A DNA stretch of 64,000 nt from an uncultured Chlorobiaceae bacterium. Lineage in GTDB: Bacteria > Bacteroidota > Chlorobiia > Chlorobiales > Chlorobiaceae. The stretch is taken from NCBI GenBank assembly GCA_903940125.1, contig CAJAJL010000008.1, positions 1 through 64,000 of the forward strand. Direction: 5' to 3'. A model generated the notes under the pieces. It worked only from the letters and a program-made list of their open reading frames with translations, ran no database searches and was not told the DNA's origin. Position 1 is the stretch's first letter; every line of letters starts with the position of its first letter. The translations under genes were made by a program, and so were the position numbers. Of the stretch, positions 1 to 64,000 are shown piece after piece.

Positions 1-1425
1 CCCCCGCGGGCGCGTGGATTGAAACCCATTTCGCATTGCGCAGCTCCCCAGGACGGACAGTCGCGCCCCCCGCGGGCGCGTGGATTGAAACGGCTGCAGC
101 ATCAAGCAGTCGCTGAATATCTTCAGTCGCGCCCCCCGCGGGCGCGTGGATTGAAACTTGCCACACTGCATCAGCTTCATAATACAATCGTCGCGCCCCC
201 CGCGGGCGCGTGGATTGAAACAACACTTGTACTTCATCGACAGGTAAAGTTAAATCGTCGCGCCCCCCGCGGGCGCGTGGATTGAAACGTTGACACGCTG
301 GTAAAATGCGCCAACGCACAGAAGTCGCGCCCCCCGCGGGCGCGTGGATTGAAACAAGCTTAATTCTTGCCTGATTTATGTGTGCTGAAGGTCGCGCCCC
401 CCGCGGGCGCGTGGATTGAAACCCTGATTTGCTGCTGTAGCAATTCCTGTATTCCCCGGTCGCGCCCCCCGCGGGCGCGTGGATTGAAACACTTGAGCGG
501 AAAGAGTTGTAACTGTTCCGGCAGGTCGCGCCCCCCGCGGGCGCGTGGATTGAAACCGACCTATCTGGATCAGGTCATGGGAGACCAAAGGTCGCGCCCC
601 CCGCGGGCGCGTGGATTGAAACTAAATTCCTTCCGGCTCATTACCTCGCTGACAAAGGTCGCGCCCCCCGCGGGCGCGTGGATTGAAACATCAGACCGAT
701 ACTGCTCGAAAACCAAGGATGGTCGTCGCGCCCCCCGCGGGCGCGTGGATTGAAACAGTGGGAAGAACATGGAGCGGAAAACAAGAACATCGTCGCGCCC
801 CCCGCGGGCGCGTGGATTGAAACAGGGTTGGGATGGAAGTATGCAGGCACTGTTTTGAGTCGCGCCCCCCGCGGGCGCGTGGATTGAAACGCTTGCTTTG
901 ACTACCTGCAACTCCGGATAAATCCTGTCGCGCCCCCCGCGGGCGCGTGGATTGAAACACAATAGGTCAGCGAAAAAATAAGAACATCAACGTCGCGCCC
1001 CCCGCGGGCGCGTGGATTGAAACTGCTCAAGAAGTCTGTTGAACTCGTTGATAAACGCCGTCGCGCCCCCCGCGGGCGCGTGGATTGAAACCGACAACAG
1101 ATAACACATTAACTGAATCGGCAGCTGTCGCGCCCCCCGCGGGCGCGTGGATTGAAACAAGTCAAAGCTATTGCTATCGTCTCATAATATCGTCGCGCCC
1201 CCCGCGGGCGCGTGGATTGAAACTGTCTACGGTTTAACGCTCCCTGTGATTTATGGAGGTCGCGCCCCCCGCGGGCGCGTGGATTGAAACAACGCCATTT
1301 AACTTTTCAACCATTCTCATCCCACGTCGCGCCCCCCGCGGGCGCGTGGATTGAAACTCGATAACGTCATCCCTCGTCGGCCCGTGAACTCGTCGGGCCC
1401 CCCGCGGGCGCGTGTGGATTGAAAC
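1..1425 (+). CRISPR. CRISPR array, type I-C-like repeats, trailer end
   Basis: Twenty-two copies of a 32-base repeat that begins GTCGCGCCCCCC and ends GGGCGCGTGGATTGAAAC, separated by 21 unique spacers of 32 to 36 bases. The first copy (1-25) is cut by the window edge. Full copies start at 60, 126, 190, 257, 324, 391, 459, 525, 591, 658, 725, 792, 859, 927, 992, 1060, 1127, 1192, 1259 and 1326. The last copy (1392-1425) is degenerate: one C to G change near its start and a two-base TG insertion. Each repeat can fold as CGCGCCC paired with GGGCGCG, leaving an ATTGAAAC tail, the form known for type I-C. The orientation and the decayed last repeat place the leader, and probably the cas genes, upstream of base 1. 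No cas gene is in the window. Confidence 0.98.
1392..1425 (+). repeat. Degenerate terminal CRISPR repeat (34 bases)
   Basis: Last repeat of the array. It reads GTCGGGCC where the others read GTCGCGCC, and GCGTGTGGATT where the others read GCGTGGATT. The change breaks one stem pair and lengthens the 3' handle side by two bases. Decay of the trailer-end repeat is normal and marks this as the oldest end of the array. Confidence 0.9.
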
Positions 1426-1652
1426 CCACCTTCAATACTGGCCAGCGTCGCAAGGAGCTTGATCAACGCTTGGAGAAAGCTGGGTTGCAGTTTGAATGGG
1501 AAGATATCAAGCACGACCTGAACGCACTCCAGGAAGTAACGCTGGAGGAGAGCGGACGAAAACTTGCCATCAGAACAGCAAGTGTTGGGACGTGTGGTAA
1601 GGTTTTTCAGACAATAAGGGTAGCTATGCCGCCGAGTATTCGTAACGTATAG
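1426..1652 (+). pseudogene. Transposase C-terminal remnant (IS1634-like)
   Basis: This reading frame continues straight out of the last CRISPR repeat and gives about 75 residues ending at a TAG. The tail (GKVFQTIRVAMPPSI) and the preceding stretch with FEWEDIKHDLNALQEV resemble the C-terminus of IS1634/IS4-type transposases, which end with a GKVFQ-x-x-GVA-x-PP motif. The catalytic DDE region is absent and there is no start codon of its own, so it is a dead fragment. The family call is from memory of the motif and is moderately sure. Its position flush with the array end suggests an IS insertion or a deletion trimmed the trailer side of the array. Confidence 0.6.
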
Positions 1653-56707: not shown

Positions 56708-58069
56708 TTATTTTTTCGCCACGCTAAGCCAGCTATTCACCTCTTCAACATCACTGGGTGACAACATGCCAGCACTATCCTTAAGCTGAAGATGATTCAA
56801 TATATACTGATAACGTGACTTAGCAAGATTTCTCCGGCTTGACAGCAGTTTCTGTTCCGCATCAAGCACTTCAACATTAGTGCGTAATCCCGCTTCAAAA
56901 CCTTTTTTAGTGCCTTGTAGTGCAGTTTGACCAGACTTTACTGCCTGCTCATACGCATGAATCTGTGAAATACTCGTTATCAGGCCGTTATAATACTTTC
57001 GTACATTCGAGGCAATAGCCCGTTCCTGGTAGCTGAGTTGTTCCTGTGCTTTCAGGCGCTTAGCCTGAGCCTGACGCACTGATGCACTGACATAACCACC
57101 TGAATATATAGGCAGACTCATTTGCAGACTGATTGAATATGTATCGTACGTTGAACCGATCGTATAATTATTATCACTATCTGAATAGTTTCTACTGCCT
57201 ACCAGATTAACTGAAGGGTAACGGACTGAGCGCTGCTTCTGAACCTCCCTATTGGCTATCTGAATTTCCTGACGCGCAGCAGCCACCTCATGATTTTCTG
57301 AAAGTGCAACATCTATCCAGGATTCGACATTATCAGGTACAGGTCTAGACAATATAAGCCTCTCAGGTAAAAGTGTACTGATTTCATCAGGGTAAACCCC
57401 TGTAAAATGCTCAAGCTCCCGACGATTGAACTCAAGAGCATTTACTGTTTCAACCCCATCTGCCAAGGCCATATCATAGCCTGCCTGTGCTTCACTAATT
57501 TCAGTAATAGTACCTAACCCTTTTTCAAAGCGTCGTTTAGTTTGTTGAAGCTGCTCTAACGATGCCTTTATATGAAATTGGCTAAACTCATAATTATCAA
57601 TCGCATACAAAACATTACAATAAGCCTCAGTAATTCGGATAATCAAATTAGCCTCTTCATTCTGAAGCAGTGCTTCACTTTTTGCCACCGAGGCTTTGGC
57701 CTGTTTATACTCTGCAAAATTTGAGAGATTAAACAACTGCTGCTGAACAGAAACTCCATAGTTAATTGAATTGTAAAACTGGTCATTATGCTGAAATGTA
57801 CCATAATAATAGGGTGTTACACTCTTTGTCTCGTTTCTGGCTCTTGAAACGTTAAGGTTTACTCTCGGACGAAATTGAGCCATAGTCTTGCCGACCTCTT
57901 CCCTGGATGCGAGATTATCAGCCTTCACCGCTCTTAACTGTGCATCATATTCCTCTGCTTTATTATAGAGCACCGATAAATCGACCTGACCGGCATAGAC
58001 AGGCATAGCAGCAAACAGCCAAGCAAAAACCATCATCCATACCAATAACTTCATATCCGATTTATCCAT
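56708..58069 (-). CDS. TolC-family outer membrane protein (type I secretion)
   Basis: About 453 residues from the ATG at 58069; a later ATG at 58054 is also possible. Signal peptide MKLLVWMMVFAWLFAAMPVY then AGQ. Two repeats of helical hairpins fit TolC: residues with LYNKAEEYDAQLRAVKAD and LIIRITEAYCNVLYAIDNYE in one, and VNLVGSRNYSDSDNNY then ISLQMSLPIYSGGYVSASVR in the next. The end carries LRTNVEVLDAEQKLLSSRRN. It forms the outer-membrane duct for the secretion genes upstream. Confidence 0.92.
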   Translation of the reverse strand: MDKSDMKLLVWMMVFAWLFAAMPVYAGQVDLSVLYNKAEEYDAQLRAVKADNLASREEVGKTMAQFRPRVNLNVSRARNETKSVTPYYYGTFQHNDQFYNSINYGVSVQQQLFNLSNFAEYKQAKASVAKSEALLQNEEANLIIRITEAYCNVLYAIDNYEFSQFHIKASLEQLQQTKRRFEKGLGTITEISEAQAGYDMALADGVETVNALEFNRRELEHFTGVYPDEISTLLPERLILSRPVPDNVESWIDVALSENHEVAAARQEIQIANREVQKQRSVRYPSVNLVGSRNYSDSDNNYTIGSTYDTYSISLQMSLPIYSGGYVSASVRQAQAKRLKAQEQLSYQERAIASNVRKYYNGLITSISQIHAYEQAVKSGQTALQGTKKGFEAGLRTNVEVLDAEQKLLSSRRNLAKSRYQYILNHLQLKDSAGMLSPSDVEEVNSWLSVAKK

Positions 58070-58140
58070 CACTTTTAATAAGACATGGTACAAAATACCC
58101 TTTTAATAAACCTGCATAAAAAAACACATCATAGTAGAAA

Positions 58141-59313
58141 CTACTCTTCTTTCATGGAAACCGTGACACGCTTGAACAACGGATCAACTATATAGGTCAA
58201 GAGTGAACGTTCACCAGTTTTAATGACAACCTGCACAGGCATACCCGGCTGCATTTGACGTTTACCTAAAGTTTTCATACCATCCGGAGTTACAAAAATG
58301 CGAGCAAGATAATAAGAAGCGCCAGGCATTGCAGGATTGACCTGTGGATCTGTTACAATATCTTTCGATAGCGACTCAACTTCTCCCTTCACAACCATCT
58401 GAGGAGAGTGGGAGAACGAGAAGAAACTAACATCAACAGGAAGCCCCTTACGGATACTATCAATAAACTGCGGGGAAACCTTTGCATCAATAAGAAGTCC
58501 CTCGTGAAGAGGCACAATATCCATAATCTTCTGACCCGGCTGAATCACTGCACCGACAGTCTGCACCTGTAAACCAACCACCTGGCCAGAAGCAGGTGAG
58601 CGTATCTCTGTATCTGCAAGTTCCTGAGCAAGTGCTCTTGTCTTTTCAGCATCAGCATCAACTTCAAGTTGAACCTGAGAGAGCTGAGAAGCTGTATTTG
58701 ATCTGATATCCTGAATCTTAAGCTCCAAATCCCTCTGCTGAGTCAGTGGTGCAAAACCTTCCTTGACGAGTTGCTTAATACCTGCATGTTGATCATTCAG
58801 AATCTTCAGAGTCATCATGCGCGATAAAAAGAGCTGCCGCTGATTTTGTATATTCTGTTCAACCAATACTCGATCAGGATCGTTTTTCAAATCTTTATGA
58901 AACTTAATGGACCCTGCTCCCCTCATCTCCGCGATGAGCCGATCTGCAGTAGCCCTCATACCAATATAACGCTGATGTGCCTCATCGTATCGAGCTTGAG
59001 CCGTTTGTTTGTCAAGTTTGATCAATACATCACCCTCACGGACAATCTGTCCCTCCCTGACATAGACATTTTGAATTTTTCCTCCATGCAAATTCTCCAC
59101 TACCTTACGCTTTGTTGCAATACTAACGATTCCCTGTGAAGGAACCCCCTCATCAAGCGGAGCAAAAGCGGCCCAAAGTAAAAAACCACCAAATCCAACA
59201 AGTAATATCCATATTCCGAGACGTATTGAACTACGAGTATTGCTATACTCACCATGATTTTCCTTTATTGCAGGTGCAGTCTTGTTTGTTGCCACGAGAT
59301 CACGAATACTCAT
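58141..59313 (-). CDS. HlyD-family membrane fusion protein (type I secretion)
   Basis: 390 residues. One N-terminal helix (LGIWILLVGFGGFLLWAAFA), then the lipoyl half VSIATKRKVVENLHGGKIQN and VYVREGQIVREGDVLIKLDK, long coiled coil (residues about 100-200), the second lipoyl half and a beta-barrel ending KTGERSLLTYIVDPLFKRVT. Joins the ABC exporter to TolC. Closest to PrtE/LapC-type adapters. Lies 34 bases after the second ATPase gene. Confidence 0.93.
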   Translation of the reverse strand: MSIRDLVATNKTAPAIKENHGEYSNTRSSIRLGIWILLVGFGGFLLWAAFAPLDEGVPSQGIVSIATKRKVVENLHGGKIQNVYVREGQIVREGDVLIKLDKQTAQARYDEAHQRYIGMRATADRLIAEMRGAGSIKFHKDLKNDPDRVLVEQNIQNQRQLFLSRMMTLKILNDQHAGIKQLVKEGFAPLTQQRDLELKIQDIRSNTASQLSQVQLEVDADAEKTRALAQELADTEIRSPASGQVVGLQVQTVGAVIQPGQKIMDIVPLHEGLLIDAKVSPQFIDSIRKGLPVDVSFFSFSHSPQMVVKGEVESLSKDIVTDPQVNPAMPGASYYLARIFVTPDGMKTLGKRQMQPGMPVQVVIKTGERSLLTYIVDPLFKRVTVSMKEE

Positions 59314-59347: not shown

Positions 59348-61057
59348 TCAGGCTTCAGATATTACTGGTTGTGCACTCACAGGACGCATCGCAGCTAAAA
59401 CCTGATCACGTGGTCCGCAATGGATAATTTTTCCAGCGTGCATTACCACTAATAGATCCGCTGTACCCAAAACACTGGGCCGATGTGTAATTAGAATTAC
59501 TGTTTTACCAGTCTTTCTTAAATCAATGACTGCATCAAGCAGTGACCTTTCACCGGCATCATCAAGGTTTGCATTAGGCTCATCGAGTACAATGATTGCC
59601 GGATTGCCATACATTGCTCTCGCAAGACCGAGGCGCTGCTTCTGTCCACCAGAAAGCATACCCCCAGCTTCTCCTATCTGTGTATCATAACCGCGCGGAA
59701 ACCGCAAAATCATCTCATGAATACCAGTACGTTTAGCTGCCTCAATCACCTTTTTGGGATCAACCTCGGCAAAACGTGCAATATTTTCAGCAATAGAGCC
59801 ATCAAATAACTCTATATCCTGAGGAAGATATCCAATATGTGGTCCAAGTTGCATCCTGTCCCAGCTCTCTATCGGTTCCCCATCAATAAGAACTCGTCCC
59901 TTCCTGCTTTGCCATACACCGACAATACATCGAGCAAGCGTTGATTTGCCAGAACCTGAGGGCCCAATCACCACTGCTACTCTACCAGCAGGAAATACAA
60001 CATCAAGATCATGCAAAATAGGTGTTTCACGACCATCGGCAATTGCAGAAAGTCCCTCAAGCCTCACTTCGCCCAAAGGATCCTGATGTGTAACACCAAC
60101 CTGACGTTCCGGAAATTCATCAAGAAGCTTCTCCAATCGAAGAAATGCCACGCGTGACTGAACAAATGGCTTCCAGGTAGCCACTACAAGATCAAGCGGT
60201 TGAAGCGCCTTCGACATCAGTACATTGGCTGCAATCATCGAACCAGCCGCCATCTTACCCTGAATTACCATGAGGGCACCAGCACCGAGGGTCAGAGATT
60301 GCATGCTGTAACGTATAAACTTAGCAAAAGCCTGCTGACGATGCTGTCTCTCAAGTGATGATTCCGCTTTTACAAGCGAAGCATCATGCATTTTGAACCA
60401 GCGCACTCTAAAGTTCCCAGCCATGCCCATTGCATGCACTGGCTCTATGTTTCTGAGTTTGCTCTGTACAAAACGATAGCTTTCGTTACCAGCTTCCGCC
60501 GATTTCTCTATCTCTTTAGTGGAAAGCCGATGCGTCTGCCATGTCAAGCCAAGCTGGATAACCGCAAATGCAATAGAAAGCCAGCCTAGAAATGGGCTGA
60601 GTAAAAATATCACTGCAATATAAACAGGAGTCCACGGAGTATCAAAAAATGCTATCATGCCGTTGGCCGTCAGAAACTGACGAATATTGGTCAAATCAGA
60701 AAAGGCTTCGACCACATTATGTCGAGTACGTTTCAGATAAGCCTCAAAACTCGCGTTAAAAACGAGCGAGTTAAGCGCTTCATCCAAGCGGACTCCGACA
60801 CGTACGAGAAGGCGTGAGCGAATCCACTCAGCAAAAGCCATAACACCATAAAAAAACAAAAGAAATAATGTCACCATAAGGAGTGTCAACTCACTACCGC
60901 TCTTCATAACACGACCATATACCTGGAGCATGTATATGGTCGGCGTCAGCATCAGCACATTAGCTATAAGACTGAAAATACCTACCCATACAAACTCTCT
61001 GCGAAACGTCCAGAGCTGTCGGGTTATTGCACTACGGTTAAAAAATTCAGGTTTCAT
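59348..61057 (-). CDS. Type I secretion ABC permease/ATPase (PrtD-like), copy B
   Basis: 569 residues. No N-terminal C39 peptidase or CLD domain. Six membrane helices (residues about 20-290), then ATPase: Walker A GPSGSGKSTLARC, Q-loop YLPQDIELFDGSIAENIARF, signature LSGGQKQRLGLARAMYG, Walker B IIVLDEPNANLDDAGE, switch His in LITHRPS. The DEPNANLD form is typical of PrtD-type type I secretion ATPases. It lies after copy A by 37 bases with the same order of motifs. Confidence 0.92.
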   Translation of the reverse strand: MKPEFFNRSAITRQLWTFRREFVWVGIFSLIANVLMLTPTIYMLQVYGRVMKSGSELTLLMVTLFLLFFYGVMAFAEWIRSRLLVRVGVRLDEALNSLVFNASFEAYLKRTRHNVVEAFSDLTNIRQFLTANGMIAFFDTPWTPVYIAVIFLLSPFLGWLSIAFAVIQLGLTWQTHRLSTKEIEKSAEAGNESYRFVQSKLRNIEPVHAMGMAGNFRVRWFKMHDASLVKAESSLERQHRQQAFAKFIRYSMQSLTLGAGALMVIQGKMAAGSMIAANVLMSKALQPLDLVVATWKPFVQSRVAFLRLEKLLDEFPERQVGVTHQDPLGEVRLEGLSAIADGRETPILHDLDVVFPAGRVAVVIGPSGSGKSTLARCIVGVWQSRKGRVLIDGEPIESWDRMQLGPHIGYLPQDIELFDGSIAENIARFAEVDPKKVIEAAKRTGIHEMILRFPRGYDTQIGEAGGMLSGGQKQRLGLARAMYGNPAIIVLDEPNANLDDAGERSLLDAVIDLRKTGKTVILITHRPSVLGTADLLVVMHAGKIIHCGPRDQVLAAMRPVSAQPVISEA

Positions 61058-61094: not shown

Positions 61095-62801
61095 CTACTT
61101 GTTTGAAGTTTGAGAAGCTTGTGGGGGAGACTGCAAAGCTGTCAGTACTTCCTGACAGGTACCAAAACGCTGAACCTGACCATCAACAAGGACAAGCATA
61201 TGCTCTATTGCCCCAAGAATATTCAAGCGATGTGTCATGACAATTACGGTTGTTCCCTTTGACCTCAGCAATTTTACTGCATTGAGCAGAGCAGCATCAC
61301 CAGCTTCGTCAAGGCTTGAATTCGGCTCATCAAGCACCACAAACTTCGGCATTCCATATAACGCACGAGCCAACGCAACACGCTGCCGTTCTCCCCCCGA
61401 AAGAAACGAACCATCATCACCTATCTGTGTATCGTACCCCTTCGGAAGCTGTTCAATAAAGTCGTTAAGGGCAACCATCCGACATGCTTCACGAACCTTC
61501 TCAATGTCTGGCTCACCAAAGCGGGCGACATTTTCAGCAATCGAACCTTCAAACAACTCAACATTTTGAGGTAAATAGCCTACATGCTGCCCAAGCTCTT
61601 CTTTATCCCACTGATAAATATCATTTCCGTCAAGCCTAACTTTTCCCTGCATTGCAGGCCATATACCCACCAAAAGCCTTGCAAGGGTGGTTTTGCCTGA
61701 TGCAGACGGGCCTACTATGGCAAGAGAACCTCCGGGGGCCACCCTGAACGTTACTCCTTTAAGAATTTGTACCGGACTTCTGGGAGCACCAGCAATAACA
61801 CCCTCAACAGAAAGATAGCCAGTGGGTGCCGGTAACGCCATCCCCTTTGCAGTAATAGGAAACTCTTTTAGCAAAACTTCAAGGCGATTGAACGACTCCA
61901 TAGTGCTTTCAACCTGGCGCCAGCTCCCAATAATCTGCACAAGAGGCGCTAGCACCCTACCTCCTAAAATTGAAGCAACAATCATGCCAGAACCATGCAG
62001 TTCACCCTTCAGAGTGAGCCAGCATCCCATACCAAGTAACAGAGAACCTAAAAGACTCTGGACCAATTTAGACAAAGCTGCATTAGTGCCCCCATAATCC
62101 GAAGCAACAGCCTGCTGAACAAGAAACTCACGCTGACGACCAATCCACCGTTTATGAATATCACCCAGCATCCCCATCGACTCAATTACCTGTGCATTTC
62201 GAATTACTCCATCAGCATAATTCTGAGTAATAATTGAACCACGATTAGCAGCCATCAGTGGTTCACGAATACGACGTTCATTAACGATACCAATCGCAAA
62301 CTGCGCCAAAGCACCTGCTACTGCAAACCAGCCGAGAGCTGGACTCATAAAAAAAATCAGAACAAGAATAAGTAGAGCAAAAGGGGCGTCGACAAAAGCC
62401 AGCAGTACCTGTGAAGGAAGAAATTCTCGAATTGTTTTAAGGTCTCGCAATGCCTGCGCTCCACCAACGGGTAGATTTAAAAGCCGCGCTGAAAAAATCG
62501 CACTGAAAACTCGTTCCCGTAACCCCTTGTCGAGTTCTATGCCAGCATCATGCATCACTTGACGGCGTACCCACTCCATTGCCTCAAGCAACGCATAAGC
62601 GCCGACCACCAAAATGGTGAGCATCAGCAACGTGATATGACTGCGACTGTTAACTACACGGTCATAAACCTCCATCATATATGCACTGGGCGCAAGCACT
62701 AATGCATTAACAAACAAACTGAAAAAAAAAGCTTGTTTAAGAGAAGGGAACATAAGCGCAAGAGCATCTCGCAAGGGGGAATTATCTTTAACTTTTTTCA
62801 C
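61095..62801 (-). CDS. Type I secretion ABC permease/ATPase (PrtD-like), copy A
   Basis: 568 residues with the same layout as copy B but clearly different sequence. Walker [15 protein letters not shown]-loop [20 protein letters not shown], signature [17 protein letters not shown], Walker [17 protein letters not shown], His in VMTHRLN. Both copies keep all ATPase residues, so either could act as a homodimer, or they pair as a heterodimer. It is the first secretion gene after the small DUF6447 protein. Confidence 0.92.
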
Positions 62802-62898: not shown

Positions 62899-63105
62899 TT
62901 AAGCGGGAAGTGACGCTATCAAAGCCTGCTCATAGGCACTGTGAGCGGTTTGGGCTATCGCCAATTGCATTTGCAGACGACGGATTTCATTTTCAGCCAC
63001 CTTTGCGTTCAATAATTGCTTCTGAGCTTCTTCAGAAAGTTCAGAAACTTTATACGTTTTACCGTTATGGGTCAATGTCGGTTCATCGCTCTTCGTTTTA
63101 GCCAT
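62899..63105 (-). CDS. DUF6447-like small protein
   Basis: 68 residues: THNGKTYKVSELSEEAQKQL LNAKVAENEIRRLQMQLAIA QTAHSAYEQALIASLPA is the full body, broken here by spaces. The layout (short beta start then one long helix ending in L-P) matches DUF6447 family proteins, which sit by secretion genes in several bacteria. Function unknown; probably a small adapter or chaperone. About 100 bases before copy A and the likely first gene of that operon. Confidence 0.7.
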   Translation of the reverse strand: MAKTKSDEPTLTHNGKTYKVSELSEEAQKQLLNAKVAENEIRRLQMQLAIAQTAHSAYEQALIASLPA

Positions 63106-63283
63106 AGCTCAACAGTCCTCTTTTGTTAATCCTTTTGTTTATTTAACTACTTTATCGGCTCATATTTTATAACATTTTAACCAATTTACCAAACTTTTGT
63201 TCTTTCTTTTAGGGAACAATGTTCATATATGGGTGTTACTGTAAGCTCTTGACTGATCCCTCATCCATTGTCAGTAAAATATT

Positions 63284-64000
63284 CTAACCATACATCCTTA
63301 GGACTAGTATGTTTTGAACTTCTTTTATCTTGGTATCGAGGTAAATCGACATCTCCGCAATCAAATCCCTACCTTCTTCATGAGCCTTTTTCACTTTTAC
63401 CATCATCACATAGAGATCAGAAGTCATGATCGTAGAAATTGCTGATTGTATGTCTGACATCCCTTTGTCAAGGAGTCTTATCGCTCGTTCAGTTCTCTCA
63501 AGTTCAGCATAGATACTTTCGCCTGCTACAGCCTCGGGACTTTCATACCATTGGTCAAGTATATGCTGCATCTTCATGGTGTCTTTTTGTGCATAGGCTT
63601 CGTTTAATTCAGCCATCAACTTTGTACGCAGCGTTCGAGACCGGACTTCCATTGCCTTATCCGGATGAATGATAGAAGCAATTTTTCTATACATTCTCTT
63701 TGTCTCTTTATAATCCTGAACAGCATGTGACACAGCCTTCGTTTTGAAGGTTATATTATTTCTGGTATATTTCGTATTTACTGCTGATTTCTTATTATCT
63801 TGTTTTATGTGCATTACATCAGATCCATACTCAGTGTTCTTAACCCTTAGTTCAGAGATCTGGGCATTGAGCCAGTTCAGTTCATTCTGCTTTTTACCCA
63901 CTTCGTTTGCATATCGCTGCTGAAACTGCTCGACAGTTTTGTTTAACTCCTGCAACCTGCTCTCCATTGCTTCGTGAAGGCTCAGCAATTTCTCTCCATA
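63284..64000 (-). CDS. Coiled-coil J-domain (DnaJ-like) protein, 5' end outside the window
   Basis: At least 238 codons; the frame is open to the window edge, reading Y-G-E-K-L-L before the first in-window start-like codon, so the N-terminus is beyond base 64000. An N-terminal coiled coil is followed by a J domain: YKETKRMYRKIASIIHPDKA with the HPD triad that stimulates DnaK, and helix III LMAELNEAYAQKDTMKMQHI. A C-terminal helix-rich part (RTERAIRLLDKGMSDIQSAI and on) completes it. No Gly/Phe or zinc domain, so not classical DnaJ. It reads toward the secretion genes, with 178 bases to the DUF6447 gene. Confidence 0.8.
   Translation of the reverse strand, partial: YGEKLLSLHEAMESRLQELNKTVEQFQQRYANEVGKKQNELNWLNAQISELRVKNTEYGSDVMHIKQDNKKSAVNTKYTRNNITFKTKAVSHAVQDYKETKRMYRKIASIIHPDKAMEVRSRTLRTKLMAELNEAYAQKDTMKMQHILDQWYESPEAVAGESIYAELERTERAIRLLDKGMSDIQSAISTIMTSDLYVMMVKVKKAHEEGRDLIAEMSIYLDTKIKEVQNILVLRMYG

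What the first reader, a model, noticed from the sequence alone, without database searches (positions are those of the whole stretch)
62899..64000. J-domain coiled-coil protein and DUF6447 protein at a secretion locus
A DnaJ-like protein with an HPD J domain but no other DnaJ parts, plus a small DUF6447 protein, directly precede the secretion genes on the same strand. A dedicated DnaK co-chaperone could keep the cargo unfolded before export, as SecB does for HasA. I know of no described type I system with its own J protein.
Basis: inference. Interest (0 to 1): 0.7.

Follow-up and report, generated by a model that had tools for sequence, protein, structure and literature searches.

The report
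Secretion locus with its own co-chaperone
In some green sulfur bacteria, the genes for a machine that pushes large surface proteins out of the cell come with a helper gene of the kind that switches on the DnaK folding chaperone, which suggests a private chaperone assistant for protein export; the genes and their linkage are shown, the job of the helper is inferred.

Summary
On the minus strand, a J gene (63284-64045, cut by the window edge), a DUF6447 gene (62899-63105) and a tandem PrtD-type ABC/HlyD/TolC operon follow one another; an RTX cargo gene lies just upstream, outside the window. The J protein (253 aa) has a central J domain (HPD invariant in 13 relatives; profile matches auxilin J domains, E 1.8e-6), coiled-coil arms and no other DnaJ parts. 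In the genus, J occurs in 8 genomes; in all 7 readable loci it precedes DUF6447 and the secretion operon. J-bearing operons form one clade, with a joint loss of J and DUF6447 in one member. But 32 of 39 readable loci of the same transporter lack J, so J is an accessory, not a core part. Outside green sulfur bacteria this J family was found with HEAT/TPR/Sel1 proteins, not with secretion genes. DUF6447 is different: in Proteobacteria it usually sits beside RTX/DUF4214 cargo or type I transporter genes. The likeliest role of J is to recruit DnaK and keep cargo exportable, as general DnaK/DnaJ does for HlyA. Function is untested. New variant of a known kind.

The parts
63284..64000 (-). Gene of the J-domain coiled-coil protein (full ORF 63284-64045, 253 aa; the first 15 codons lie beyond the window)
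63542..63721 (-). J-domain core, residues 109-168 (helix II, HPD loop, helix III, helix IV; canonical helix I not predicted)
63659..63667 (-). HPD motif codons, residues 127-129, invariant in 13 relatives
62899..63105 (-). DUF6447 protein, 68 aa; model: beta hairpin plus one 41-residue helix
61095..62801 (-). ABC1, PrtD-type type I secretion permease/ATPase (first of the tandem pair)
59348..61057 (-). ABC2, PrtD-type type I secretion permease/ATPase (second of the tandem pair, about 39% identical to ABC1)
58141..59313 (-). HlyD-family periplasmic adaptor
56708..58093 (-). TolC-family outer-membrane channel

Best explanation
The J protein is a dedicated (class C type) DnaK co-chaperone that one sub-lineage of Chlorobium acquired for its tandem-ABC type I secretion system. 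Its coiled-coil arms hold the cargo, or a component of the export apparatus, and its J domain makes the cell's DnaK bind the cargo, keeping the long RTX/DUF4214-type polypeptide soluble and unfolded until the ABC pair takes it. DUF6447 is a small cytosolic partner of cargo and transporter that is used much more widely and acts in the same handover step. Shown: gene identity, J-domain signature, conserved order, restriction to green-sulfur genomes with this transporter and DUF6447, shared ancestry of the J-bearing transporters. Inferred: DnaK binding, cargo binding, anti-folding role, and the role of DUF6447.
For: J lies directly upstream of, and on the same strand as, DUF6447-ABC1-ABC2-HlyD-TolC in 7 of 7 readable loci while the genes further upstream differ. 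J was found only at loci with DUF6447: 7 of 13 DUF6447 loci against 0 of 26 others (p 1.1e-4, not corrected for descent). A cargo-like gene is next to or near J in 4 loci: RTX here, a serralysin-type M10 protease with DUF4214 in L016, DUF4214/RTX proteins in L020 and L021. In a more distant genome (W9, G394, the same as G103) J, the transporter and a cargo-DUF6447 pair all occur although at three separate places. J-bearing ABC1 proteins form one clade whose one J-less member lacks J and DUF6447 together, and the sub-pairs agree with the J tree. HPD and the Y-R before it are invariant. The genome has one full-length DnaK, one canonical DnaJ and no SecB match. Precedents: in uropathogenic E. coli a dnaJ mutant makes HlyA but does not secrete it (PMC6775461); SecB holds HasA unfolded for its T1SS (PMC4257090).
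Against: About four fifths of the closely related transporter loci have no J and many have no DUF6447, so neither is needed by the machine as such. The J-less sister locus L075 keeps a cargo-like protein with a similar C-terminus. Phylogenetically the association is close to a single gain, so the counts are not independent. No J of this family seen outside Chlorobiaceae is beside secretion genes; there it pairs with HEAT/TPR/Sel1/WG repeat proteins or is fused next to a DnaA-like protein. The J domain lacks a predicted helix I and scores weakly alone. No interaction data exist.
Confidence: 0.5

Rival explanations
1. J acts with DnaK to take apart or remodel an assembly, as auxilin does with clathrin coats, rather than to hold cargo unfolded: for example it dissolves oligomers of DUF6447 or of the ABC/HlyD complex after each export cycle.
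For: The family profile matches auxilin J domains best among solved structures. J is tied to DUF6447 more than to any particular cargo. Elsewhere the family pairs with repeat proteins that look like scaffolds or adaptors.
Against: The best match to auxilin reflects the sequence of the J domain only; no assembly is known. Four loci have a cargo-like gene beside or near J.
Confidence: 0.2
2. J is a bystander of a variable surface-protein and glycosylation gene cluster that happens to have been inherited next to the transporter; it serves another process in the cell.
For: One acquisition explains most of the linkage. Flanking genes are glycosyltransferases and other surface genes. In W9 the J gene is not linked to the secretion genes. 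Relatives elsewhere have no tie to secretion.
Against: J stays close upstream of DUF6447 and the operon in all 7 loci although J proteins have diverged to 42-51% identity and the upstream neighbours have changed; in W9 DUF6447 and the transporter are still present; J and DUF6447 are missing together in L075.
Confidence: 0.22
3. J and DUF6447 control the amount or timing of cargo (for example DnaK-linked turnover or feedback on expression) rather than its folding state.
For: DnaK/J systems can direct proteins to proteolysis (general knowledge); DUF6447 genes in Sulfitobacter are often next to helix-turn-helix regulators.
Against: No DNA-binding or protease-adaptor domain was found in either protein; such regulators were not seen at the Chlorobium loci.
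Confidence: 0.08

Closest known systems
SecB and the HasA type I system of Serratia (PMC4257090)
   Same: A cytosolic chaperone needed to keep a type I cargo unfolded
   Different: SecB is a general Sec-pathway chaperone, not encoded at the T1SS locus and not DnaK dependent; this genome has no SecB match
General DnaK/DnaJ in HlyA secretion by uropathogenic E. coli (PMC6775461)
   Same: A J protein plus DnaK is required for export of an RTX cargo; same proposed step
   Different: Uses the housekeeping DnaJ; here a separate J protein lies in the secretion locus
Class C (type III) J-domain proteins; nearest solved J domains auxilin
   Same: J domain with HPD, internal position, no G/F, zinc-finger or C-terminal substrate domains
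   Different: Bacterial, flanked by coiled-coil arms, linked to type I secretion in Chlorobiaceae
DUF6447 (PF20045) proteins of Sulfitobacter, Ruegeria, Rhodospirillum and Pseudomonas plasmids
   Same: Same small family, mostly next to RTX/DUF4214 cargo or T1SS ABC genes
   Different: Single PrtD-type ABC or none nearby, no J protein
J plus HEAT/TPR/Sel1 two-gene modules of Desulfobacterota, Acidobacteriota and Ca. Hatepunaea
   Same: Same coiled-coil J family over nearly the full length (about 27-34% identity)
   Different: Partner is a repeat protein with a shared N-terminal motif; no DUF6447 in the four genomes tested and no secretion genes beside it

Membership tests
J-domain protein family | HPD motif in the loop between helices II and III | tested here: met
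   Invariant in 13 sequences; modelled helix-loop-helix
J-domain protein family | Statistically significant similarity to known J domains | tested here: met
   PF00226 in 8 of 8 members, best E 1.2e-5; auxilin in PDB E 1.8e-6 with the profile; the window sequence alone is below the Pfam cut-off
J-domain protein family | Match of the model to solved J-domain folds | tested here: inconclusive
   Helical-bundle matches fill the Foldseek and VIA-align lists
J-domain protein family | Stimulates Hsp70 ATPase | not testable with these tools
   needs purified proteins
Classical DnaJ (class A/B) | G/F region, zinc finger or C-terminal substrate-binding domains | tested here: not met
   No such domain in Pfam or NCBIfam scans
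Type I secretion system, PrtD type | PrtD-family ABC, HlyD-family adaptor, TolC-family channel in one locus | tested here: met
   TIGR01842, TIGR01843, TIGR01844 above cut-off
Type I secretion system, PrtD type | Cargo with RTX repeats next to the operon | tested here: met
   1194-aa protein with HemolysinCabind above cut-off; its secretion was not tested
DUF6447 (PF20045) | Curated Pfam score cut-off | tested here: inconclusive
   26.4 against 27 bits, E 5.8e-6; orthologues in the same position exceed the cut-off
Dedicated T1SS chaperone | Required for secretion of the cognate cargo | not testable with these tools
   needs deletion strains
Dedicated T1SS chaperone | Conserved linkage to the transporter across genomes | tested here: met
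   7 of 7 readable loci in Chlorobium; one unlinked exception in W9

The most novel reading that the evidence does not exclude
A type I secretion system with its own private Hsp70 co-chaperone: the J protein, with DUF6447, selects RTX/S-layer-like cargo and hands it with DnaK to a heterodimeric ABC pair, so that chaperone recruitment is part of the secretion apparatus.
Probability: 0.4. Interest if true: 0.7.

Novelty: new variant of a known kind. Interest (0 to 1): 0.5.

Why it matters
How type I cargo is kept unfolded before export is known for very few cases (SecB for HasA, housekeeping DnaK/DnaJ for HlyA). A transporter locus that carries its own J protein would give a defined, deletable part for that step. 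The survey also shows that DUF6447, which has no known function and is not mentioned in any paper held here, is a widespread companion of type I cargo and transporter genes in two phyla, which makes it a testable general accessory factor.

Tried and rejected
Fold comparison of the J model gave only helical-bundle matches; no J domain appeared in the lists, which says nothing either way. Fold comparison of DUF6447 gave nothing. The hits in four other genomes of the phylum (L022-L025) are a different protein (about 340 aa) at an unrelated conserved locus and were set aside. A 53% match of L083 to the cargo was a short local hit; the full protein is a different cargo type with a Gly-rich hydrophobic C-terminus. 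An apparent DUF6447 fusion in Rhodospirillum rubrum may be a gene-start error, as an internal Met precedes the domain; not used. Genome-level co-occurrence of J with the transporter within the genus is only borderline (p 0.049) because the transporter is common. Promoter and terminator scans were near shuffle level and not used. No plasmid record matches the locus DNA. Searches for a described T1SS J protein or any paper on DUF6447 found none.

Full report
What is there. The window is the first 64,000 bases of contig C8 of a green sulfur bacterium (the nearest named relatives are Chlorobiaceae; the genus is called Chlorobium here by inference). On the minus strand, in order of transcription, lie an RTX-repeat protein of 1194 aa (contig 64440-68024, outside the window), the J protein (63284-64045, 253 aa), the DUF6447 protein (62899-63105, 68 aa), two PrtD-family ABC proteins (61095-62801 and 59348-61057), an HlyD adaptor (58141-59313) and a TolC channel (56708-58093). 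Gaps between genes from cargo to ABC2 are 394, 178, 97 and 37 bases.

Is it a J protein? The window sequence alone matches PF00226 weakly (17.2 bits). Eight relatives all match it (best E 1.2e-5); the alignment profile finds auxilin J domains in the PDB at E 1.8e-6 and many DnaJ-type domains below that. H127 P128 D129 and the Y119-R120 before them are invariant in 13 sequences that are otherwise as low as 28% identical. AlphaFold (mean pLDDT 82.7) shows a long N-terminal helix, a disordered linker, a helix-HPD-helix-helix core and three C-terminal helices. Helix I of the canonical J domain is not predicted. So: a J-domain protein with coiled-coil arms and no other DnaJ parts.

Is the linkage real? 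Of 101 genomes searched, 8 of the same genus (this one included) have the J protein; the 7 others are 42-51% identical, and four distant hits are unrelated. All 8 genomes have the tandem-ABC system, which 40 of the 61 genomes of the genus have by an ABC1 match of 52% identity or more. In the 7 loci that can be read, J precedes DUF6447 and then ABC1-ABC2-HlyD-TolC on the same strand; the eighth is cut by a contig end. In 5 loci a further conserved gene without Pfam match (about 165 aa, called X165 here) lies between J and DUF6447. Reading the upstream side of 41 ABC1 loci (two too short to read), DUF6447 is next to ABC1 in 13; J is in 7 of these 13 and in none of the 26 readable others. A tree of 42 ABC1 proteins puts the 7 J-bearing loci in one clade of 8 (support 91/90); the eighth (L075, G005) lacks J and DUF6447 together. 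The J tree repeats its sub-pairs. So J was gained about once, inherited with the operon, and kept beside it through large sequence change. Descent means that the loci are not independent witnesses. A ninth green-sulfur genome, W9, has J, the tandem transporter and a cargo-DUF6447-X165 cluster at three separate places.

DUF6447 outside this locus. Orphan copies in Chlorobiaceae follow directly on large RTX-like or DUF4214 genes (L056, L060, L062). Among 12 annotated plasmid regions of Proteobacteria, 10 have DUF6447 beside or one gene from a DUF4214/RTX gene, a very large unknown protein (one case), or a T1SS ABC gene; two Pseudomonas plasmids have it before a SapC-family gene, one of them also after a 704-aa unknown protein. 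X165 homologues follow DUF6447 on the way to the ABC gene in two of them. No J protein of this family is there. DUF6447 is therefore a wide T1SS/cargo companion; J is a green-sulfur add-on. The DUF6447 model is a beta hairpin and one long helix, without a fold match.

The J family elsewhere. Full-length relatives in Desulfobacterota (12 of 395 genomes at E below 1e-30), Acidobacteriota, Ca. Hatepunaea and Paraburkholderia are mostly followed by a HEAT, TPR, Sel1 or WG-like repeat protein with a shared N-terminal motif, often with overlapping genes, or form a fused protein of about 440 aa after a DnaA-like gene. None is next to secretion genes in the stretches read. The four genomes tested have no DUF6447. 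The family as a whole seems to lend DnaK recruitment to different partners (inference).

How it most likely works. Established: type I cargo is exported unfolded; SecB does the holding for HasA (PMC4257090; PMC3034196); in uropathogenic E. coli a dnaJ mutant makes but does not secrete HlyA (PMC6775461). This genome has one full-length DnaK, one ordinary DnaJ and no SecB match. Inference: the locus J protein recruits DnaK to the cargo or to the docking site so that the long polypeptide stays exportable, with DUF6447 in the same handover. Against a necessary role: four fifths of related loci lack J, and L075 keeps a cargo-like gene without J or DUF6447. The cargo at several J-less loci is of another type, with a hydrophobic C-terminal anchor (L077, L079, L083, L100), which would fit a cargo-specific helper but was not tested statistically.

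Verdict. Function remains inferred. I found no paper on a T1SS with its own J protein or on DUF6447 in the library held; subscription journals are largely missing from it.

Noticed in passing
L016 10208-10711, L017 15790-16356, L018 9461-9958, L020 9369-9851, L021 10515-11030; L122 5231-5779; L124 5137-5724: A conserved protein of about 165 aa without any Pfam match (motifs VEDRI and VVFWLT) lies between J and DUF6447 in Chlorobium and after DUF6447 on Roseobacter-group plasmids with T1SS genes; a paralogue sits beside atpD/atpC in several Chlorobium genomes (L104-L110). It is absent from the window's genome.
   Followed up: partly
L131-L142, L034-L037, L116: The J family forms two-gene modules with HEAT/TPR/Sel1/WG repeat proteins that share an N-terminal RGLxDL-like motif, and a fused form of about 440 aa following RuvB-like and DnaA-like genes in Desulfobacterota.
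   Followed up: partly
L111 and L118 (Pseudomonas plasmids), about 9.0-10.1 kb: DUF6447 directly precedes a SapC-family gene, a family named after the S-layer export region of Campylobacter fetus.
   Followed up: no
L077, L079, L083, L100: J-less tandem-ABC loci carry very large proteins upstream that end in a Gly-rich stretch plus a hydrophobic C-terminal segment, unlike the soluble-looking C-termini at J/DUF6447 loci.
   Followed up: no
window 1-1432: CRISPR array: about 21 copies of a 32-nt repeat GTCGCGCCCCCCGCGGGCGCGTGGATTGAAAC at 64-68 nt spacing, running off the window start.
   Followed up: no
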